The notes beneath the pieces were generated by a model. The model had not been told where the DNA came from and did not search any database. It was given only the letters and a program-made list of their open reading frames with translations. Positions 1,576-64,000 of a stretch of 64,000 nt of DNA are shown one piece after another; positions within the stretch are counted from its first letter, which is position 1, and each line of letters opens with the position of its first letter. This stretch comes from a virus: IMG/VR virus record IMGVR_UViG_3300029826_000001, positions 1 through 64,000 of that record. One strand, 5' to 3'. The translations under genes were made by a program, and so were the position numbers.

Positions 1576-1629
1576 TTTAAGCCAATAAATGATATGATTA
1601 ATGTATCCAAAAAACCAACAAAAAGGATG
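1576..1629 (+). promoter_or_regulatory. Early-type promoter and leader P1
   Basis: TTTAAG at 1576-1581, an 11-base spacer, and a -10 box TATGAT at 1593-1598. The leader holds AAAACCAACA at 1611-1620, extending to AACCAACAAA, a 10-base complement of the apical loop of the 43.2 kb RNA. A weak ATCC/GGAT stem (1605-1608 with 1625-1628) brackets it. Drives the gene at 1634. Confidence 0.75.
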
Positions 1630-1633
1630 AATA

Positions 1634-1873
1634 ATGCTAACAAATGATATTAAAAAAGGAATGAGAGTAAAACTATCAAGTGGATGGTTTGGAACAATGT
1701 ACGATAATAAAAAAGGGAACACAAGGGTTGTTGATGTAGAGGGAGACTTCCACGAAATAGGAAGTGTTTATGCTTGGGATATTGTAGCTGTAAATGTTGA
1801 TAATGTCTGGCATGGTATCGAACTCACACCAAAGCAACTTAAAGCAAAAACAGACATAGAGAAAATGTTTTAA
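1634..1873 (+). CDS. Hypothetical beta-rich protein, 79 aa
   Basis: First gene behind promoter P1, with AAAAGGA upstream of ATG 1634. The product looks like a small beta barrel (KKGMRVKLSSGWFGTMYDNK, followed by further strands), a shape common in short phage proteins of KOW/SH3-like type. That fold assignment is inference from pattern only. Function unknown. Confidence 0.75.
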   Translation: MLTNDIKKGMRVKLSSGWFGTMYDNKKGNTRVVDVEGDFHEIGSVYAWDIVAVNVDNVWHGIELTPKQLKAKTDIEKMF

Positions 1874-2659: not shown

Positions 2660-2887
2660 ATGAATAGCTCAAAAACATTTGCAAAACCGACACCATCTTC
2701 TCTATTGAAGAATGCTTTTATTGAGTATGGTGAAGTAACTAAGAATCCATCACAGCTAATGTTTAATGGCGAATCCTATATTTTAAAAGAGAAAAGCAAA
2801 GAGTTGTTCTTCGGTAGTGAAGATGAAGTTGTTGATTATCTAAGAAGTGAGATTCGTAAGCATGATAGTGAAGATACTGAGATGTGA
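2660..2887 (+). CDS. Hypothetical protein, 75 aa
   Basis: ATG 2660 follows GGTAGGAAT, a weak ribosome site, directly behind promoter P2. The acidic C-terminus overlaps the next gene. Pattern of alternating beta strands and helices (MFNGESYILKEKSKELFFG). No family recognised. Confidence 0.68.
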   Translation: MNSSKTFAKPTPSSLLKNAFIEYGEVTKNPSQLMFNGESYILKEKSKELFFGSEDEVVDYLRSEIRKHDSEDTEM

Positions 2888-3416
2888 GGTATGTAATACA
2901 ATCCTTGATGGCTCAAAGAAGACAAACTGTGGCTCCAAAAAATGCAAGGCAACCATAGCAAGAAGACGCTACAAAAAAAGAAGAGAAAACAAGCTCCTAA
3001 AGAGACCATGCCCTTGTTGTGGAAAGATAATCCCAAATACAGAAGATAAATATTGTTCAGATATGTGCCTTGTTCGATGTGACGGAATAAGTCCTAGTGA
3101 AGAAAGGTACATCAACACCCATAAGTACAATATAGTGAAACTTGCGAGTCTAGCAAGGCTACTTCCAGAAAATAGAAAAAGACTAAGAGAAATAGAGGAC
3201 AGACTAAGAAGAAAGTATAGTGCAAGATACCATTTCAGCTTACCGATGAACACCCTATTGAAAGAGTTCGGGTTCACAGAAGATTTGGATGTAATGTCGT
3301 ATGATTTATATTTGAATGGAATGTTAACTGGGTCAAGCTATCAAGAAGTAGCTTATGACCTCAGCATATATAGAAAGCTATTTGACTATGGTATTATTCT
3401 TGGATTTATCGAGTAA
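2862..3416 (+). CDS. Double zinc-finger protein, 184 aa
   Basis: Two cysteine clusters are visible: CEVC...C...C near residues 8-30 and CPCC...C...C near residues 50-72, separated by a very basic linker rich in K and R. This is the pattern of two treble-clef or ribbon zinc sites in a DNA- or RNA-binding protein. The C-terminal half is helical. ATG 2862 lies in the end of the previous gene; a GTG at 2847 is the alternative start. It ends tail-to-tail with the minus-strand gene, overlapping it by 11 bases. Likely a transcription or processing factor; function is inferred. Confidence 0.72.
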   Translation: MIVKILRCEVCNTILDGSKKTNCGSKKCKATIARRRYKKRRENKLLKRPCPCCGKIIPNTEDKYCSDMCLVRCDGISPSEERYINTHKYNIVKLASLARLLPENRKRLREIEDRLRRKYSARYHFSLPMNTLLKEFGFTEDLDVMSYDLYLNGMLTGSSYQEVAYDLSIYRKLFDYGIILGFIE

Positions 3417-3839: not shown

Positions 3840-3934
3840 TAATTGTTATGAATAAGTAAATATTAAGCCAATAATTACTATAATGCATTAAGCAAAAAAC
3901 CAACAAAGGTTACAAAATATCAAAAGGACTAGAT
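3833..3934 (+). promoter_or_regulatory. Early-type promoter and leader P3, with an upstream degenerate copy
   Basis: ATTAAG 3862-3867, 11-base spacer, TATAAT 3879-3884. The leader has AACCAACAAA from 3898 and GGACTAG at 3926-3932 just before ATG 3935. A diverged second copy (ACAAG, 11 bases, TATGAA) lies at 3831-3852 and overlaps the minus-strand -35 box, so the divergent promoters may compete. Confidence 0.75.
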
Positions 3935-4162
3935 ATGACAAAAACAGAGCAATTAAAACAGCTTATCGAAAACAACGAAATGGATAAGGCACTTTCACTT
4001 GCTAAGTCATTTAAGATTTGGGATAGAAAGGAGGATAAAGAGGTGGTTATATTGGCTCATGAGTGCAATGTTAACCCAGACTTTTACAGACAGATAGGAA
4101 AGGATGTTCCAGCTTGTATTGAGGCTGGAGTAAACACGCTGAAAAGAATTTACTTGGACTAG
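3935..4162 (+). CDS. Small conserved phage protein, 75 aa
   Basis: ATG 3935 follows the AAGGACTAGAT leader. The layout (a helical repeat reading DKALSLAKSF..., then FYRQIGKD and a final helix AGVNTLKRIY) resembles a small protein seen in the early regions of many phages whose role is not known; this resemblance is from memory, not a search. Followed 10 bases later by the next gene with AGGAGG. Confidence 0.75.
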   Translation: MTKTEQLKQLIENNEMDKALSLAKSFKIWDRKEDKEVVILAHECNVNPDFYRQIGKDVPACIEAGVNTLKRIYLD

Positions 4163-4172
4163 GAGGTTTATT

Positions 4173-4400
4173 ATGATGAGTGTAAATTTTATTATGGACT
4201 ACGAAAGTGGTATCGCATCAGATGTTGATACGTTGAAAAATTTTGCAGAAGGAATCAAAGACGGTTCTGTGTGGGGTCTTCAGGGTCACTACGGAAGAAC
4301 TGCAAAAGCAATGATTGATGATGGATGGATTGAGCGTAATGGTGAGCTTACTGAAAAGGCTCTTGAATTTATAGCAGATGAGGAGATTGATAGTGAATAA
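4173..4400 (+). CDS. Small conserved phage protein, 75 aa
   Basis: AGGAGG lies six bases before ATG 4173. The core SVWGLQGHYGRTAKAMIDDG is a pattern I recognise from short proteins of many phages, of unknown role, often near dUTPase or recombination genes. The C-terminus is acidic and overlaps the dUTPase gene start. Confidence 0.75.
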   Translation: MMSVNFIMDYESGIASDVDTLKNFAEGIKDGSVWGLQGHYGRTAKAMIDDGWIERNGELTEKALEFIADEEIDSE

Positions 4401-8761: not shown

Positions 8762-8767
8762 TATAAT
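8762..8767 (+). promoter_or_regulatory. Late-type promoter
   Basis: TTTTGTG directly precedes TATAAT 8762-8767 in the 63-base gap between the portal fusion and the 8798 gene; TAAAAAGGAG-type ribosome site follows. Confidence 0.55.
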
Positions 8768-8797
8768 ACAAATTATTGGCTTGAAAAAGGAGTAAGC

Positions 8798-37730: not shown

Positions 37731-39476
37731 ATGGCTTTCGGAAGTGCTTACTATGTAGACCCATGTATTAACGATAAACCTCAAGACCCTTGTTGGATGA
37801 TAACAACAAGAACTGCAAATGAAATAACAGAAGAGGAGCCTATTGAGCCAAATAATAGCTTCAAGGCATCATCAGCAACAAGTGACAGAATAAAGAAGGT
37901 TAGAGAAGGTCAATGTTGGGAAGTTAGGGTTAGTCAAGACCCATGTTGGTCTCTAAATGTCAGTACGTTGTGTGGTCAAAATCCAAATCCAAGATTTGAA
38001 AAAGATATAGAGCTTGAAGAGCATGATATATTTAGAGCATACGCTGTTCATATAAGGGGTGGGGAGATATATATGGCTGTAGAGTTTAGACCACCAGACG
38101 AGCCAGACGATGTGTATCTTGATATTTTTGGTTACAGCGGTAAACCTATACAAGTTGGTCAGGATTTGAAATATGCATATTATCCATCATACAAATCAAC
38201 ACAAATAGTTGATGTTTCACACCCGTTGACTGGTGCTGTTCCTCATAGTATCGGTGTTGGAGACTATGGATACAAGTATATAATAACTGATAAACCAGAG
38301 TTCTTTGAAGTTAGATATAAGCTTGATGCTGGATTCAGAATTATTAGGGGTATTTTTTCAAGTGCATTTGATAAGCAAGGTCATTATATGTCTGCTATAA
38401 TTGATTCAATTGAACTCAACAATACACTCATAGGTGCTGGATGTTCTCTTATGGCTCATGAAAGTTCAGGTCTTACTGATTACTTGTATTTCAATGCAAT
38501 GAATGGAAATTCGTATAGAATTGATATGCTAGGGTTTTCTATTGTACCTTTGTCCACTTCAAATTTGAACTATATGCTCACAAAAACAATCGCATTGAAG
38601 ACAGAAAGTAAGACAAGATTCTATGTTGAAGAGGACTATGGTGAGCCAAATGCATATCCTACAGATTTTGCTCTGGGTTCATATAAATGGACATATCTTA
38701 ATGTTATGCAGAATGATGAAATTACAATTGGTTTTCCAGTATTTGATGGGAATATTTTAAATTACGAACAAGCAGTATTGCAGAATTTATATTACCTTAT
38801 TCAAGACCCAGAGTCATCTGGCGGTTCATGGGGAGGGGTTGGTAATACTGGCTCTATTATTGGTACAGCACCATATAATCCAGATAAATATTTCAGAGAA
38901 CCTATACCGTATCCCCCAGTGATACCATATACACTACCATCATACTATGGTAATTATGCTGTTCTTGTTGGTATGACCCCATATACAAGCTATATTACAG
39001 ATGGTTTTGAACTTGTAGCTAACGGACTTATGAGTGATTCAATCATAAGAATGAATATAGGTGATGATTTCATAATTTCAACTGGAGGTGAGATACTTTA
39101 TCTCGAAAATAATCACGGTTCTTTTGTTGGAATAACTGTTCATAAGATAATTGACCACTCTCAGGGTGGACTTGGAATATTTTATGGTGTTAATCCATCC
39201 CATCCAATTGATAATGTTCTTGCTGTATATTTTGATGGTAATCCAATACCATACCAGATAGCTCAGGATTCATCAGAAAACTTCTTTTTGAATGTGTACA
39301 AACAGTATGGTAATGTAGATGTTGATTATTCTGGAATTGGTATCGTATCAGAGCAAGTAAATAAGATAGGTGAGACCAAGATAGACTATTGCTATTATCA
39401 AGGAATTCTTGTTATGTCAAATGGAACAAATGTGCTAAAAGTAAGAGATGTTATTGATGCTATTTTTTGGAATTAG
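37731..39476 (+). CDS. Tail-tip protein sharing the hub repeat module, 581 aa
   Basis: Starts AFGSAYYVDPCINDKPQDPC with three CW/PCW pairs in the first 85 residues (disulfides or zinc possible). The middle is beta-rich. Near residue 470-540 it repeats the hub module (VYFDGNPIPYQIAQDS ... VDYSGIGIVSEQVN), nearly matching VYSNGQPISYTTAQDS ... VNYSGVGLVSEDLD of the 34306 gene. Last gene of the structural block. Likely the terminal tip or central fibre protein. Confidence 0.68.
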   Translation: MAFGSAYYVDPCINDKPQDPCWMITTRTANEITEEEPIEPNNSFKASSATSDRIKKVREGQCWEVRVSQDPCWSLNVSTLCGQNPNPRFEKDIELEEHDIFRAYAVHIRGGEIYMAVEFRPPDEPDDVYLDIFGYSGKPIQVGQDLKYAYYPSYKSTQIVDVSHPLTGAVPHSIGVGDYGYKYIITDKPEFFEVRYKLDAGFRIIRGIFSSAFDKQGHYMSAIIDSIELNNTLIGAGCSLMAHESSGLTDYLYFNAMNGNSYRIDMLGFSIVPLSTSNLNYMLTKTIALKTESKTRFYVEEDYGEPNAYPTDFALGSYKWTYLNVMQNDEITIGFPVFDGNILNYEQAVLQNLYYLIQDPESSGGSWGGVGNTGSIIGTAPYNPDKYFREPIPYPPVIPYTLPSYYGNYAVLVGMTPYTSYITDGFELVANGLMSDSIIRMNIGDDFIISTGGEILYLENNHGSFVGITVHKIIDHSQGGLGIFYGVNPSHPIDNVLAVYFDGNPIPYQIAQDSSENFFLNVYKQYGNVDVDYSGIGIVSEQVNKIGETKIDYCYYQGILVMSNGTNVLKVRDVIDAIFWN

Positions 39477-42515: not shown

Positions 42516-43121
42516 ATGAATATCGGTTGGGTACAACAAAAAGAAGTAAAAACAGATGGTGGAACAGCAAAGTTCCTTGAGATGTCAATTAGAGCACCCT
42601 TTGGCTCCATGACGGCAACACTTACAAAATATAAACCAAAGGAAGGTGAGGAGCATAATGAAAACTCACCAGATTACTACATCAACTTCAGTCCAAACAG
42701 AAAGGGTGAGAGCTTTGACAGAATGAGAGTTGGAGCACTTTGGATGAAGCAATCTCAAAACAATGAGACATACATGAGTGGATACATTGACAGTCCTTTT
42801 ATGGTTCCAGCTGGTAGACTGCATATCAATGTGGTCAAGTATGTTCACAGAGAAGGAATGAAAGTTCAGCCTATTCTCTACAATGTGCTCTGGAGTTCAC
42901 AAGCTGAGAATGACAGTCACAAAAGAAGAACAGCTAGTCAAGGTGGATATGATGATGGTAGAGGTGGTGATTATGATAGCGGTTATGCAGATTATCAAGA
43001 ATCAGTAGGTCAGAGTCAGCAAGTTGGAACAACTGCTGGTGGAGCACCAGTAACTGTTGAAAATGCTCCAGCACATCATATTCCAGAAATTGACATCAGT
43101 GAAGAAGAAATACCCTTTTAG
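42516..43121 (+). CDS. Single-stranded DNA-binding protein-like, 201 aa
   Basis: An N-terminal beta domain (about residues 1-130) is followed by a flexible G/Y/D/Q-rich linker (about 135-180) and an acidic tip ending EISEEEIPF-like (IDISEEEIPF), the hallmark of SSB C-termini that recruit partner proteins. It ends the recT-exo operon, where phage SSBs are usual. The core sequence is not a plain OB-fold match, so it may be a divergent or analogous SSB. Confidence 0.75.
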   Translation: MNIGWVQQKEVKTDGGTAKFLEMSIRAPFGSMTATLTKYKPKEGEEHNENSPDYYINFSPNRKGESFDRMRVGALWMKQSQNNETYMSGYIDSPFMVPAGRLHINVVKYVHREGMKVQPILYNVLWSSQAENDSHKRRTASQGGYDDGRGGDYDSGYADYQESVGQSQQVGTTAGGAPVTVENAPAHHIPEIDISEEEIPF

Positions 43122-43161
43122 AATGGAATCATTTAATCTAAAATATAATTCCATTTTAGAT
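43122..43161 (+). terminator. Mutually exclusive hairpins after the SSB gene
   Basis: ATCTAAAAT/ATTTTAGAT (43136-43161) forms a 9-bp hairpin after the SSB stop. An alternative stem, AATGGAAT (43122-43129) with ATTCCATT (43148-43155), would break it. This looks like a terminator with an attenuator-type choice, although no clean T run follows directly. Confidence 0.5.
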
Positions 43162-43169
43162 AAAGAATT

Positions 43170-43192
43170 TTTAAGGTAAGTATTGTTATAAT
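43170..43192 (+). promoter_or_regulatory. Early-type promoter P5, driving the structured RNA
   Basis: TTTAAG 43170-43175, 11-base spacer, TATAAT 43187-43192, the same geometry as the early operon promoters. Predicted transcript start near 43199. Confidence 0.75.
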
Positions 43193-43198
43193 ACGACA

Positions 43199-43480
43199 AC
43201 CTATGAAGGAGGGTTTGTTGGTTGCTTCCCATCCTTCAAAAAGTAGGTAGGAGTAACAGCCTTAGCTCCGATTCTTGACATGAAGCTAGTTTCCTAGTCC
43301 GAACGGTCGCTTCATTCAAGAAGGTTCCTTATGTAATTTTAATGCAGTTGTCCAACTGTATCAGACTTTGGGTGCCACCCCTCTTCCCCTTTAGGCACCC
43401 AAGTTTGATTATCTGACTGTTGCATTAAGATTATCCTCAAGGATTTGGCATTGGACAACTGCTAATCAATCTTAAATAAA
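43199..43480 (+). ncRNA. Structured regulatory RNA, candidate trans-acting antisense RNA
   Basis: About 280 bases, more GC-rich than the surroundings, without a credible gene, behind its own promoter. Stems: 43205-43213/43228-43237; 43250-43256/43262-43269; a 14-bp stem 43272-43286/43309-43322; a 7-bp GGGTGCC/GGCACCC stem 43370-43376/43394-43400 with TCAGA/TCTGA outside; the ATCC-TCAA-GGAT hairpin 43433-43444; and a perfect 10-bp long-range pair 43344-43353/43453-43462. Two loops are complementary to conserved parts of early leaders: TGTTGGTT (43216-43223) to AACCAACA, and CTAGTCC (43294-43300) to GGACTAG. A third loop is pyrimidine-rich (43377-43392). It could also be the leader of the 43493 gene. 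Not recognised as a known RNA class. Confidence 0.72.
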
Positions 43481-43492
43481 ATTGTCGAAAGA

Positions 43493-44164
43493 ATGGATAT
43501 GGGGAATCCAAATTACTTTGGAATTATTACTGCTCCTATAAGATACTCAAAAACGCTAACTGATTTCCAGAAAATACTGTACTCTGATATAGTTGCATTA
43601 TCAAATAGATATGGCTATTGCACAGCATCTAATGACTACTTTGGTAATTTGTTCGATAAGGCTCCAGAGACAATATCTCGCTCAATAAGTGCATTACAGA
43701 AAGAAGGTCATTTAAAAGTCGTTATGGTTTACGACAAGGAAAAGCCAAGATTAATCATAGGAAGAAGAATATATCCAGTAACTAAGTTCGATGAAGATAA
43801 TCCACTTGATGAAAAATATCGAACAGAAGAGCAAGTTCCACAGCATAGAAAAAAGAAAAAAGCAGAACAAGTTGAAATACCAGCATGGATAGATAGAGAG
43901 ATATGGAGTCTATGGGAGTCACATAGGGCTGAAAAAGGACAAAAGCTAACCCCAACATCAATAAAACAGCAAATCAAGCTCCTAGAGGCAAACAAGCCAC
44001 TTTATAGGGATATTATCATTCAATCAATAAGGAATGGTTGGACTGGACTATTCCCTATCAAACCAAATGCTGGTATAATTAATAAGCCAGAAGAGGGAAG
44101 CATAGGTTGGCATATGCAGAATGAAGAAAGGAACTCAGATACCATTGATGCGGAGATAGAATAA
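43493..44164 (+). CDS. Replication initiator-like winged-helix protein, 223 aa
   Basis: Residues about 10-80 form a DnaD/RepA-type helix-turn-helix: LTDFQKILYSDIVALSNRYG, then FGNLFDKAPETISRSISALQ as a recognition helix region. C-terminal half has a basic KKKKA linker and a helix LTPTSIKQQIKLLEANKP with GWTGLFPIKPN, seen in phage replication proteins. It sits directly behind the structured RNA. Probably loads replication proteins or binds the origin; inferred. Confidence 0.72.
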   Translation: MDMGNPNYFGIITAPIRYSKTLTDFQKILYSDIVALSNRYGYCTASNDYFGNLFDKAPETISRSISALQKEGHLKVVMVYDKEKPRLIIGRRIYPVTKFDEDNPLDEKYRTEEQVPQHRKKKKAEQVEIPAWIDREIWSLWESHRAEKGQKLTPTSIKQQIKLLEANKPLYRDIIIQSIRNGWTGLFPIKPNAGIINKPEEGSIGWHMQNEERNSDTIDAEIE

Positions 44165-44769
44165 TGGCAAATATTAATCCAGACCATCTTTTGATTTTAG
44201 CTGGAATTATGGGGTTGGATGTCAACTCTCGTTCAGACAGCAAATTCATAGGATATTGCATCAACGGTATAAATGATATTGATGCATTTATCCAGTATTG
44301 CAATGATAAAAAGGATGGAATCATAGCAAAAAGGCAAGAGAAGCTAAATATCCTTTCAATAAAATTCAAAAAAATGGAAGAAGATGCAAGGCTAAGTGAT
44401 GACTCGAATAAGGCATTAGTATATGCAAAGAGGCTTGCTGAGAAGGTTGCAGAAACAAGAAGCAGTGTCAAAAATGCAAGGGAAGAACAAGAGTTCAAAG
44501 GTATTGACGTTACAGCTGGGTTTGGAAGTGTAATAGACCACTACACAAAAGAAAAATACTTCACAGATAAAGAGATTGCAACACTTGTTGCAGTAGCAAA
44601 AAACACAGAGAAAGTTATCTTCTATTCAGAGACTGGGGAACTCGCAGACATGATTTATCAGGCATATATAAACAAGCTTAAACCAAAAAAGAAGTACGAA
44701 GCACTCGCTGATGGTCAAAAGAACGTTATGAAGATGATAAGTGGAGCGGTCAAACATGGAGAAGACTAA
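44164..44769 (+). CDS. Hypothetical replication-module protein, 201 aa
   Basis: TAATG overlap with the preceding gene. Helical with a long basic coiled coil at about residues 50-105. The position after a replication initiator would suit a helicase loader or primosome helper, but there is no Walker motif, so no enzymatic role is claimed. Confidence 0.65.
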   Translation: MANINPDHLLILAGIMGLDVNSRSDSKFIGYCINGINDIDAFIQYCNDKKDGIIAKRQEKLNILSIKFKKMEEDARLSDDSNKALVYAKRLAEKVAETRSSVKNAREEQEFKGIDVTAGFGSVIDHYTKEKYFTDKEIATLVAVAKNTEKVIFYSETGELADMIYQAYINKLKPKKKYEALADGQKNVMKMISGAVKHGED

Positions 44770-46756: not shown

Positions 46757-46833
46757 TGGTGGGTAAGTATGGACTTGAACCATAGACCAACCGCTTATGA
46801 GGTGGTTGCTCTAACCAACTGAGCTACATACCC
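46757..46833 (-). tRNA. tRNA with CAT anticodon (Met or Ile-CAT)
   Basis: Cloverleaf on the minus strand: acceptor GGGTATG/CTTACCC (one mismatch), D arm GCTC/GAGC, anticodon loop CTCATAA, T arm TATGG-TTCAAGT-CCATA, discriminator A and encoded CCA. The anticodon stem has one A-C mismatch. CAT reads Met, or Ile (AUA) if lysidine-modified; the sequence cannot separate these. Confidence 0.85.
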
Positions 46834-46847
46834 GAAATATTGATATT

Positions 46848-46924
46848 TGGCTGAGATAGGGGGCATCGAACCCCCAAACATCACATTAACAGTGTGACGG
46901 ATTTACTAGTTTGCCTATATCTCA
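46848..46924 (-). tRNA. tRNA-Asn (GTT)
   Basis: Acceptor TGAGATA/TATCTCA, anticodon stem TCACA/TGTGA with loop CTGTTAA (anticodon GTT), T arm GGGGG-TTCGATG-CCCCC, discriminator G and encoded CCA. Fully paired and probably functional. Confidence 0.9.
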
Positions 46925-46928
46925 ATAG

Positions 46929-47018
46929 TGGAGGAGTATGTAGGATTTGAACCTACGGTAGTTTTAACTACAAGTGACTAGCAATCACCCAGATTAAACC
47001 AGACTCTCTCAATACTCC
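46929..47018 (-). tRNA. tRNA-Ser (GCT)
   Basis: Acceptor GGAGTAT/ATACTCC, anticodon stem GGTGA/TCACT with loop TTGCTAG (anticodon GCT, AGC/AGU codons), a long variable arm (TGTAGTT/AACTAC), T arm GTAGG-TTCAAAT-CCTAC and encoded CCA. The discriminator is T, whereas G is usual for serine. Confidence 0.87.
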
Positions 47019-47023
47019 ATGTA

Positions 47024-47122
47024 TGGCAAGTATCTCTGGACTTGAACCAGATTTGAGGTCATGACAAACTCAACGCTCTAAAGAAACACTCAACTAGTAT
47101 CATTCCAATATAGCAAATACTT
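47024..47122 (-). tRNA. Aberrant class II tRNA, anticodon unclear
   Basis: Acceptor AAGTATT/GATACTT, T arm TCTGG-TTCAAGT-CCAGA, a variable arm TTGAG/CTCAA, G discriminator and encoded CCA all pair, so this is tRNA-shaped and 99 bases long. No anticodon arm with a 5-bp stem and 7-base loop could be placed. It could be a decayed Leu/Ser-type tRNA or a non-decoding form. Confidence 0.6.
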
Positions 47123-47140
47123 ACAGATAAAAAAACAATA

Positions 47141-47215
47141 TGGAGCGTCAGGGTGGATTCTAACCACCGACCTTCCAGCTGGAAACTGGATGCTCTAACA
47201 CTGAGCTACTAACGC
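47141..47215 (-). tRNA. tRNA-Gly (TCC)
   Basis: Acceptor GCGTTAG/CTGACGC, D arm GCTC/GAGC, anticodon stem TCCAG/CTGGA with loop TTTCCAG (anticodon TCC), T stem GGTGG/CCACC and encoded CCA. The T loop is TTAGAAT instead of TTCGAAT, losing the C56 that normally pairs with G19. First tRNA of the transcript. Confidence 0.85.
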
Positions 47216-49521: not shown

Positions 49522-49577
49522 AATAAGCCAATAATTGTTATAATAATGTACACAAAAACCAACAAAAAAGGAAACAG
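49522..49577 (+). promoter_or_regulatory. Early-type promoter and leader P6 (modification island)
   Basis: AATAAG 49522-49527, 11-base spacer, TATAAT 49539-49544. AACCAACAAA from 49557 (10-base complement of the RNA loop). The ribosome site is AAAGGAAAC rather than GGACTAG, and there is no leader hairpin. Confidence 0.72.
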
Positions 49578-50036
49578 ATGAAAACTGGAAATTTCTCTCA
49601 CAAGATACCTAGCGACAAATATTGTAGGGTATCAATAGCGGTCGGAGACCCAAAGTATGGTGATAAGCCAGATTTTAAGATAGACCAACTTGCACCGACA
49701 TGGAAGCTACTCAATGCATTTAGAAATGAAATGATTACAGAAGAAGAATATGTTGCTCAATTCAATGAACAATTATCTGTACTCAATCCAAAAGGAACGC
49801 TAGAAGCAATCAAAAAAGCGTGTGGAGACAAGGAGCCAGTATTATTGTGTCACTGTGGGAAACAACACTTTTGTCATAGACATCTTGTTGCTGAATGGCT
49901 TGAGAATGGAACTGGTGAAAAAATTGAGGAATTCAATTATGGTGAAACACCAAGATATCATGGAAGAATCATCAAAGGTGTAAAACATAGTGAAGAAGAG
50001 CCAGAACAATCATTAGAATGGAGTCTGTTTGGATAA
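49578..50036 (+). CDS. DUF488-family protein, 152 aa
   Basis: The C-terminal half carries VLLCHCGKQHFCHRHLVAEW (about 98-117), the Cys and CHR signature of DUF488 proteins. Found in bacteria and phages, with unknown biochemical role; the conserved Cys-His-Arg hints at nucleotide or nucleic-acid chemistry. First gene of the predicted modification operon, joined to the next gene by an eight-base overlap. Confidence 0.72.
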   Translation: MKTGNFSHKIPSDKYCRVSIAVGDPKYGDKPDFKIDQLAPTWKLLNAFRNEMITEEEYVAQFNEQLSVLNPKGTLEAIKKACGDKEPVLLCHCGKQHFCHRHLVAEWLENGTGEKIEEFNYGETPRYHGRIIKGVKHSEEEPEQSLEWSLFG

Positions 50037-54286: not shown

Positions 54287-54342
54287 TTTAAGCCAATAAA
54301 TGTCATAATACTTGTACTTAAAAACCAACATAAGGACTAGAC
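54287..54342 (+). promoter_or_regulatory. Early-type promoter and leader P7
   Basis: TTTAAG 54287-54292, 11-base spacer, CATAAT 54304-54309. AACCAACA at 54323-54330 in a small loop closed by CTTA/TAAG (54317-54320 with 54331-54334), which overlaps the ribosome site. GGACTAG at 54334-54340. Confidence 0.75.
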
Positions 54343-54519
54343 ATGGAAGACATTAAAAAGAAGATAGCCATTGAAGCAATCAGAATGGTTGCAAAGCACT
54401 ATAACACTACAGCATCAAAAGTTGCTCAATCAATTAAAGATGGAAATGAAAAAGTCAAGAATCAAGTTAACTTTATTTGTGTTGCAACTCTAAATAATCT
54501 ACTAGTGGAATCGGCATGA
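54343..54519 (+). CDS. Small helical protein, 58 aa
   Basis: Behind promoter P7, with AAGGACTAGAC before ATG. Helical and mixed-charge (KIAIEAIRMVAKHYN). The end overlaps the next ATG (ATGATG). Unknown function, but the promoter and leader are strongly conserved with other early genes. Confidence 0.62.
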   Translation: MEDIKKKIAIEAIRMVAKHYNTTASKVAQSIKDGNEKVKNQVNFICVATLNNLLVESA

Positions 54520-55449: not shown

Positions 55450-55506
55450 TTTAAGCCAATAATTGTTATAATACAGATACCAACAAACCAACAAAAAGGA
55501 CTAAAA
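55450..55506 (+). promoter_or_regulatory. Early-type promoter and leader P8
   Basis: TTTAAG 55450-55455, 11-base spacer, TATAAT 55467-55472. AACCAACAAA from 55486, ribosome site AAGGACTAA (one change from GGACTAG). No leader hairpin. Confidence 0.72.
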
Positions 55507-55791
55507 ATGAAATTAACTACCTTCTCAGTAAGAGACTTTGACGATAAACTAACTGGTCATGTACTGATTGATATTTCAGACAGAGACAAAGCAAAGGTAG
55601 AGTTTGTATTAAACTATCTTGCTAACATCGGTGGATGGAGCATAGCTAACTGCCCTAACGAGGAAGATGGTGTTTATTCTGACTCAATTTCTGTTCTTTC
55701 ATGTGAAGTAAAGCTCGCAAAGGAATATTACAAAGATGCAAAGACTGAACTTCAAAAGCTAATAAAATCAATTCGTGATACCAATTTCTAG
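55507..55791 (+). CDS. Hypothetical protein, 94 aa
   Basis: Alpha/beta protein with a helix DKAKVEFVLNYLANIGGW. First gene behind promoter P8 and followed at once by AGGAGG for the next. Unknown function. Confidence 0.65.
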   Translation: MKLTTFSVRDFDDKLTGHVLIDISDRDKAKVEFVLNYLANIGGWSIANCPNEEDGVYSDSISVLSCEVKLAKEYYKDAKTELQKLIKSIRDTNF

Positions 55792-57245: not shown

Positions 57246-57318
57246 TTTAAGCCAACAATTGTTATAATACGTTATATCAAAAAACCAACTTGATATAAAA
57301 AAATACTAAGGACTAGAT
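57246..57318 (+). promoter_or_regulatory. Early-type promoter and leader P9 with perfect 9-bp hairpin
   Basis: TTTAAG 57246-57251, 11-base spacer, TATAAT 57263-57268. TTATATCAA (57272-57280) pairs perfectly with TTGATATAA (57290-57298) around the loop AAAACCAAC. GGACTAG at 57310-57316. Confidence 0.82.
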
Positions 57319-60185: not shown

Positions 60186-60261
60186 TTTAAGCCAATAAAT
60201 GTTATAATCAATGCATGAATAAAACCAACTATTCATAAATAAATTACAGAAGGACTAGATT
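60186..60261 (+). promoter_or_regulatory. Early-type promoter and leader P10 with 7-bp hairpin
   Basis: TTTAAG 60186-60191, 11-base spacer, TATAAT 60203-60208. ATGAATA (60215-60221) pairs with TATTCAT (60230-60236) around AAACCAAC. GGACTAG 60252-60258. Confidence 0.8.
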
Positions 60262-60612
60262 ATGGAAAATCTATTTAGACTCAACAGAAACGGACATACG
60301 GCAGAGGAAATTTTCGGTAAACCTACAGACGAGCTTGTTAAGATAACAATGGAAGATTTATACGCAGATATTCCTTTTGCACTGTTTATCTACAGAGCAA
60401 CAACGGTGAAGGCTGATTTAATGGCTCCAGTATCTATTATTCTTGGTGTATTAATCGGAAGAAGGCTTGAAGAGAGAGAAGACATGGTTGAGTATCTTGT
60501 TAACTCAGTCAGGGATAGGGGTGATAGAGAGATTGTGATTAGGGCATTGAGTTTCATAACGGACAAGGAAGATATGATGAAAATTTTAAAAAGAGAGGAA
60601 GAGCAATGTTAG
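60262..60612 (+). CDS. Hypothetical protein, 116 aa
   Basis: Helical, with a hydrophobic stretch LMAPVSIILGVLIGRRLEER near residue 52-71, possibly a weak membrane helix or a buried core helix. First gene behind P10; overlaps the next by seven bases. Confidence 0.62.
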   Translation: MENLFRLNRNGHTAEEIFGKPTDELVKITMEDLYADIPFALFIYRATTVKADLMAPVSIILGVLIGRRLEEREDMVEYLVNSVRDRGDREIVIRALSFITDKEDMMKILKREEEQC

Positions 60613-61569: not shown

Positions 61570-61640
61570 ATTAAGCCAATAAATACTATAATATGATATG
61601 TCAAAAAACCAACTTGACAAATAAAAATAAGGACTAGAAA
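61570..61640 (+). promoter_or_regulatory. Early-type promoter and leader P11 with hairpin
   Basis: ATTAAG 61570-61575, 11-base spacer, TATAAT 61587-61592. TGTCAA (61599-61604) pairs with TTGACA (61614-61619) around AAAACCAAC. GGACTAG 61631-61637. Confidence 0.8.
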
Positions 61641-61952
61641 ATGGCATACGCATACCCAATATGGAATAAAGTTGAAGCTTGTATCTATAACTCCGATAAA
61701 AGCTATGGAGCGAAAGAAACAAGCAAGGTAAACATCTTGGTAGGTAGTAGTAAGTCGAACTCTTACGAACTTGCAGAGGCAATCACAACAAAAAGAAGAT
61801 ACTTCGATGAGGATGCAAATGAATACAGATGGAAATTCAGACATTCTGTAGACGGTGTTATCCTCAAGGAAATAATCTTTAAAGACAACAAAGGTAAAGC
61901 TGGTGAGTTTATCAAAGAGCGTTCTGCACTCAAAAGAATGAAGGGGTTGTAA
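61641..61952 (+). CDS. Hypothetical protein, 103 aa
   Basis: Starts with AYPIWNKVEACIYNSDKSYG and contains the basic C-terminal GEFIKERSALKRMKGL. No family recognised. The opposite-strand long frame across this region is a shadow of this gene and the next. Confidence 0.62.
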   Translation: MAYAYPIWNKVEACIYNSDKSYGAKETSKVNILVGSSKSNSYELAEAITTKRRYFDEDANEYRWKFRHSVDGVILKEIIFKDNKGKAGEFIKERSALKRMKGL

Positions 61953-63799: not shown

Positions 63800-63875
63800 T
63801 TTAAGCCAATTAATGTTATGATATAACTATCAAATAAAAACCAACATTTGATAAAACCAACACTAAGGACTAGAC
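63800..63875 (+). promoter_or_regulatory. Early-type promoter and leader P12 with 8-bp hairpin
   Basis: TTTAAG 63800-63805, 11-base spacer, TATGAT 63817-63822. TATCAAAT (63828-63835) pairs with ATTTGATA (63846-63853) around AAAAACCAAC; a second AACCAACA follows at 63855-63862. GGACTAG 63867-63873. Confidence 0.8.
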
Positions 63876-64000
63876 ATGACAGAAGAACGAAACATTGTTC
63901 TATGGTACAGAAACAGAGCAGACAAAGACAAACTATACACATTTGATGAGATAGCTGATGGATTCCTTGAGAGTGAATTCTACTCAGACTACAAGAAGGA
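63876..64000 (+). CDS. Hypothetical protein, 5' part only (41 codons in window)
   Basis: ATG 63876 follows AAGGACTAGAC. The frame stays open to the window end: charged and helical (TEERNIVLWYRNRADKDKLY). Cut off by the window, so no family can be assigned. Confidence 0.65.
   Translation, partial: MTEERNIVLWYRNRADKDKLYTFDEIADGFLESEFYSDYKK

What the first reader, a model, noticed from the sequence alone, without database searches (positions are those of the whole stretch)
43199..43480. Structured phage RNA with two loops complementary to conserved early leaders
The loop at 43214-43227 includes TGTTGGTT (43216-43223), the exact complement of AACCAACA; at P1, P3, P6 and P8 the match extends to ten bases (TTTGTTGGTT against AACCAACAAA). 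A second large loop includes CTAGTCC (43294-43300), exact complement of GGACTAG, which overlaps the ribosome site of at least six early leaders (P3, P7, P9, P10, P11, P12). Two independent matches, both in predicted loops and both to conserved leader parts, are hard to explain by chance. This suggests a phage RNA acting in trans on the phage's own early operons, perhaps by loop-loop contact and blocking or opening of ribosome binding. Direction of effect is unknown. It could instead be a structured 5' leader of the 43493 gene.
Basis: partly seen in the sequence, partly recalled or inferred. Interest (0 to 1): 0.93.

Follow-up and report, generated by a model that had tools for sequence, protein, structure and literature searches.

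The report
Phage RNA with leader-matching loops
A phage RNA just in front of the replication gene carries two hairpin loops that match, letter for letter, the conserved starts of about a dozen of the phage's own messages, and next to them a second RNA switch whose loops pair with each other, a switch that recurs with different but still matching letters in other phages; this suggests RNA-by-RNA control of the infection programme, not yet tested at the bench.

Summary
The window is part of a 67.3-kb IMG/VR phage with no close relative found. Eleven promoters of one type head leaders with AACCAAC, in four of them shown in hairpin loops with different stems. Region 43199-43480 has its own promoter of that type and two modules. 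(1) In the 5' domain (43199-43326), the loops UUUGUUGGUU and CCUAGUCC give the best accessible pairing site for all 11 leaders; 0 of 1000 loop-permuted controls and 0 of 525 genome windows score as well, and 2 of 1000 dinucleotide shuffles do for the whole RNA. An unlisted target, the ribosome site of gene 4173, matches all 8 nt of the second loop. (2) In the 3' domain (43333-43465), directly upstream of the replication initiator, two stem-loops have mutually complementary loops. The same arrangement, with other letters, lies upstream of the homologous gene in contig L074 and Fusobacterium phages FNU4 and Funu2, where both helices show compensatory changes. Best reading: a rep-mRNA leader holding a cis kissing-loop switch plus a c4/CI-like trans regulator of early leaders, most likely a translation repressor. 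Trans action is inferred: no relative carries both the 5' domain and the leader motif.

The parts
43173..43192 (+). Promoter of the RNA: AAGGTAAGTATTGTTATAAT, 3 mismatches to the phage promoter consensus AAGCCAATnATTGTTATAAT; inferred start near 43199
43199..43248 (+). Hairpin 1; loop 43214-43227 holds UUUGUUGGUU (43214-43223), complement of leader AACCAACAAA/AACCAACA
43250..43269 (+). Hairpin 2 (GGAG...CUCC); loop holds CCUUAG, complement of CUAAGG in the ribosome sites of the leaders at 57249 and 63803 (weak, 6 nt)
43272..43322 (+). Hairpin 3; apical 8-nt loop CCUAGUCC at 43293-43300, complement of GGACUAG(G) at ribosome sites
43333..43434 (+). Stem-loop I of the rep leader: helix a 43333-43348 with 43419-43434; 5' side of its loop carries b (43344-43355, GCAGUUGUCCAA)
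43445..43465 (+). Stem-loop II: UUGGCA-loop-UGCUAA, loop UUGGACAAC (43451-43459) is b', complement of b; perfect 12-nt complementarity 43344-43355 with 43451-43462
43493..44164 (+). Replication initiator (phrog_678, O-like; HTH N-terminus), gene downstream of the RNA
1579..1636 (+). Promoter and leader with AACCAACAAA, in front of gene 1634
3865..3937 (+). Promoter and leader with AACCAACAAA and GGACTAG, gene 3935
4156..4175 (+). Extra target: GGACTAGG overlapping the ribosome site of gene 4173, pairs with all 8 nt of the hairpin-3 loop
39649..39706 (+). Promoter and leader with AACCAACA and GGATTAG, RecT/exonuclease operon
49525..49580 (+). Promoter and leader with AACCAACAAA, DUF488-amidoligase-ParB operon
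54290..54345 (+). Promoter and leader with AACCAACA and GGACTAG
55453..55509 (+). Promoter and leader with AACCAACAAA
57249..57321 (+). Promoter and leader; AAACCAAC in a hairpin loop (AUAUCAA/UUGAUAU), then CUAAGGACUAG
60189..60264 (+). Promoter and leader; AAACCAAC in a hairpin loop (AUGAAUA/UAUUCAU), then GGACUAG
61573..61643 (+). Promoter and leader; AAACCAAC in a hairpin loop (UGUCAA/UUGACA), then GGACUAG
63803..63878 (+). Promoter and leader; AAACCAAC in a hairpin loop (UAUCAAAU/AUUUGAUA), a second AACCAACA, then CUAAGGACUAG

Best explanation
43199-43490 is the structured 5' leader of the replication-initiator mRNA, transcribed from its own phage promoter, and has two working modules. 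The 5' domain (hairpins 1-3) is an antisense-type regulator. Its hairpin-1 loop pairs with AACCAAC(A), shown at the 5' end of the early leaders, and its hairpin-3 loop pairs with GGACUAG over their Shine-Dalgarno sequences. The likely result is repression of early translation in trans once the rep transcript accumulates, either from the full leader or from a processed 5' fragment. The 3' domain is a cis switch: the loop of a long stem-loop pairs with the loop of a short stem-loop just upstream of the rep start, controlling rep translation as loop-based pseudoknots do in I-complex plasmids. Shown here: promoter similarity, structure, complementarity beyond controls, and recurrence with covariation of the 3' module. 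Inferred: transcription, trans pairing in the cell, the sign of the effect, and processing.
For: Same promoter type as the target operons, with the inferred start at the base of hairpin 1. Best site in every leader is one of the two loops. 0 of 1000 loop-permuted and 0 of 525 genome windows score as well; the windows with hairpin 1 and hairpin 3 rank 1 and 2. 2 of 1000 shuffles and 0 of 238 windows for the whole RNA. Leaders against other gene starts p 9e-8, and the only strong other gene start (4173) carries the 8-nt loop-3 complement over its SD. AACCAAC in hairpin loops with stems differing in sequence in four leaders. 3' module: most structured window of the whole record in three phages, each just upstream of rep; crossing helices 0 of 300 shuffles in four phages; compensatory changes in both helices among Fusobacterium phages; b' in the loop of a second hairpin.
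Against: No relative with leader motif and 5' domain was found, so covariation of the trans pairing cannot be tested. The other phages with the 3' module lack the leader motif and show no trans signal. The hairpin-1 match does not extend into the most conserved side of the leader motif (AAAACCAAC): the base next to GUUGGUU is G, not U. Pairings are short (7-10 bp). The all-gene-start test gives rank 3 of 518, not rank 1. No transcript evidence.
Confidence: 0.55

Rival explanations
1. Cis only: the whole region is a structured leader controlling rep translation. The 5' hairpins serve folding, stability or timing, and the match to the early leaders is chance.
For: 3' module recurs upstream of rep without a matching 5' domain in L074, FNU4 and Funu2; no intrinsic terminator found before rep; word-level p only 0.0065-0.11.
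Against: Two separate loops, each the genome's best pairing window for the leaders; 0 of 1000 loop permutations; leader-specific energies.
Confidence: 0.25
2. Trans RNA that activates instead of repressing: pairing at AACCAAC opens or stabilises leaders, for example by undoing the weak 5' hairpins that partly hide the ribosome site, or by protecting 5' ends.
For: In the leaders at 1579, 54290 and 65429 a 4-5 bp stem around AACCAAC can include the SD.
Against: Loop 3 pairs over the SD in six leaders plus gene 4173, which would block ribosomes; in the four strong leader hairpins the SD is already free.
Confidence: 0.12
3. DNA element: the inverted repeats upstream of rep are part of a replication origin and the RNA view is incidental.
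For: Lies next to the initiator gene in four phages.
Against: Crossing helices b/b' with compensatory changes including a G-U pair, and loop placement in FNU4/Funu2, are an RNA signature; no direct repeats (iterons) in 43100-44200; promoter reads into the element.
Confidence: 0.06

Closest known systems
c4 antisense RNA of phages P1/P7
   Same: Structured phage RNA; short complementary segments in loops; pairs around a ribosome site to block translation (PMC12197685).
   Different: c4 acts on one target, ant mRNA; here about a dozen dispersed operons would be targets. No Rfam match.
CI RNA of satellite phage P4
   Same: RNA from an untranslated transcript that controls replication genes; pairs with leader sequences (PMC4825925).
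   Different: CI RNA targets seqA/seqC flanking it in its own transcript and acts by transcription termination; here the matched sites are in other operons and overlap ribosome sites.
Rep-leader pseudoknots of I-complex plasmids (IncI-alpha repZ; IncB and IncL/M repA)
   Same: Rep mRNA leader with a stem-loop I whose loop pairs with a sequence upstream of the rep start; loop letters set specificity (PMC10724649 and references there; details of the pairing from my own knowledge).
   Different: Plasmids, enterobacterial, with a known antisense RNAI; here phages, loop-to-loop with a second hairpin, no antisense RNA shown, no sequence homology claimed.

Membership tests
c4 antisense RNA (P1/P7) | Complementary segments in loops, matching the target around a ribosome site | tested here: met
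c4 antisense RNA (P1/P7) | Sequence/structure homology to a described RNA family | tested here: not met
   No family at gathering score; best E 0.82 to unrelated microRNAs
c4 antisense RNA (P1/P7) | Target is the ant mRNA | tested here: not met
   Matched leaders lie in about a dozen dispersed operons with other genes
P4 CI RNA | RNA encoded in the untranslated leader of a replication operon | tested here: met
   Promoter 43173, initiator gene 43493, no terminator found between
P4 CI RNA | Targets flank the RNA in its own transcript and cause transcription termination | tested here: not met
   The two leader-matched words are found in other operons; termination itself not testable
I-complex plasmid rep leader | Stem-loop I whose loop pairs with a site just upstream of the rep start | tested here: met
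I-complex plasmid rep leader | Antisense RNA (RNAI) opposite stem-loop I | tested here: inconclusive
   Only a 9-of-12 promoter-like site on the - strand (43458-43430), at chance level
I-complex plasmid rep leader | Leader peptide translation coupled to rep | not tested
   -

The most novel reading that the evidence does not exclude
A phage replication-initiator leader doubles as a master RNA regulator: two loops kiss the leaders of about a dozen early operons and shut them off as replication starts, while a self-kissing pair of loops with fast-changing, covarying letters sets rep output and could give RNA-based incompatibility between related phages.
Probability: 0.3. Interest if true: 0.87.

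Novelty: new variant of a known kind. Interest (0 to 1): 0.74.

Why it matters
The phage RNA regulators described in the review read here act on one or a few targets. An RNA that reads a shared tag in about a dozen of a phage's own leaders would be a post-transcriptional counterpart of an early-gene repressor and would tie the early-to-replication switch to one transcript. Separately, a covarying kissing-loop element in front of replication initiators of unrelated phages would be a phage parallel to plasmid copy-number control, with specificity letters that can be tested directly.

Tried and rejected
Rfam search at gathering and at E up to 10: nothing (L074; FNU4). A sponge for a leader-binding protein: the RNA carries the complement of the leader motif, not the motif. 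Inverted copy of a leader: the order of the two matches in the RNA is not that of a reverse-complemented leader. Close relatives: TerL, Rep and RecT single queries, promoter, leader and promoter-plus-leader patterns in viral and genome collections gave none, or chance hits mostly in coding sequence; L003 shares one promoter-like 36-mer only. Looking for the same trans system in L074 and FNU4: no shared leader motif and no outstanding pairing window. The 3' module in other initiator homologues (Staphylococcus, Lactobacillus, Pseudomonas and other phages): not seen.

Full report
What the window is. The window is 1-64000 of a 67,303-base IMG/VR virus record. It is a tailed phage: TerL, portal, RecT, exonuclease VIII, an O-like replication initiator, RusA-like and ParB-like proteins, amidoligase, and nearly all genes lie on the + strand. 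No close relative was found: best TerL identity is about 50%, there is no megablast match in phages, and no promoter-leader pattern match in 84,980 species genomes.

The leaders. A consensus scan finds promoters of the form AAGCCAATnATTGTTATAAT (extended -10, no usual -35) at 1579, 2623, 3865, 39649, 49525, 54290, 55453, 57249, 60189, 61573, 63803 and 65429 (record coordinate), and a diverged one at 43173 in front of the RNA, so transcription should start near 43199. Eleven of these leaders carry AACCAAC 12-16 nt after the -10 box (the exception is 2623). At 57249, 60189, 61573 and 63803 it is the loop of a 6-8 bp hairpin whose stem letters differ each time; three more have 4-5 bp stems. Six end in GGACTAG over the Shine-Dalgarno site.

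The 5' domain. 43199-43326 folds into three hairpins. Loop 1 holds UUUGUUGGUU; loop 3 is CCUAGUCC. With opening costs counted, the best site in every leader is one of these two loops. Controls: whole RNA 2 of 1000 dinucleotide shuffles and 0 of 238 genome windows; 5' domain 0 of 1000 loop-permuted controls and 0 of 525 windows, with the windows containing hairpin 1 and hairpin 3 ranking first and second separately; leaders against 86 other gene starts p 9e-8. The single other gene start with a strong match, gene 4173, pairs with all eight letters of loop 3 across its ribosome site, an independent hit. Weaker readings: word tests give 0.0065-0.11, and when all 101 gene starts are used without choosing leaders the region ranks 3 of 518. 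The target set was defined by promoter and motif, and the finding came to me because the match had been noticed, so I treat the p values as supportive rather than final.

The 3' domain. In three phages with a homologous initiator (this one; IMG/VR contig L074; Fusobacterium phage FNU4) the most structured 140-nt window of the whole available record lies just upstream of the initiator gene. In these and in Fusobacterium phage Funu2 the element has the order a-b-a'-b': a long stem a/a', its loop side b, and b' just before the gene; 0 of 300 shuffles reach this in each case, whereas six other initiator loci do not stand out. b' itself lies in the loop of a second hairpin, so the contact is loop to loop. 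Sequences differ completely between the groups. Between Funu2/L253 and FNU4, aligned through a conserved ribosome site, four pairs of a and four of eight pairs of b change on both sides and stay paired; one pair is lost. Cross-pairing between groups is weak except window/L074. This is good evidence for a real RNA element upstream of rep.

How it most likely works. One transcript from 43173 runs through both domains into rep; no intrinsic terminator was found. The 3' domain would set rep translation by loop contact, as pseudoknots do in I-complex plasmids (PMC10724649). The 5' domain, free or attached, would pair with early leaders and, because loop 3 covers their Shine-Dalgarno sequences, most likely represses them. 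This is close to c4 RNA of P1/P7 (PMC12197685) and to CI RNA of P4, which also controls replication genes from an untranslated transcript (PMC4825925), but with many targets. The trans step, its sign and any processing are inferred.

What limits the claim. No relative has both the leader motif and the 5' domain, so the decisive comparative test could not be made. The other carriers of the 3' module show no such trans pattern. No expression data exist.

Noticed in passing
1579, 2623, 3865, 39649, 49525, 54290, 55453, 57249, 60189, 61573, 63803 (and record 65429): A family of phage promoters AAGCCAATnATTGTTATAAT with an extended -10 and an unusual conserved AAGCCAAT just upstream, nearly all on the + strand; possibly needs a phage factor.
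   Followed up: partly
43333-43465; L074:3335-3450; L156:2885-2985; L246:1378-1475: Kissing-loop element in front of the replication initiator in four phages, with covarying loop letters; may be a phage counterpart of plasmid copy control and incompatibility.
   Followed up: yes
L074:2290-2520: Second strongly structured stretch in the divergent intergenic region of L074's phage, with GGGCAACCAAA...TTTGGTTGCCC arms; an AP2/HNH-like endonuclease gene (2706-3293, judged by eye) follows.
   Followed up: no
L156:2370-2475 (Fusobacterium phage FNU4, record about 37855-37960): Structured stretch with CTAAGGCTAGTCCTTAG; CTAGTCCTTAG is the exact complement of CTAAGGACTAG in two leaders of the window phage. 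Probably chance (palindromic), but unexplained.
   Followed up: partly
46757-47215: Four tRNA genes (Met, Asn, Ser, Gly) on the - strand of an otherwise + strand genome.
   Followed up: no
43123-43161: Weak inverted repeats between the upstream gene and the RNA promoter, perhaps a terminator of the RecT operon.
   Followed up: no
8763-8782 (- strand): The only - strand match with at most 3 mismatches to the phage promoter consensus; it lies near the start of gene 8759/8798.
   Followed up: no
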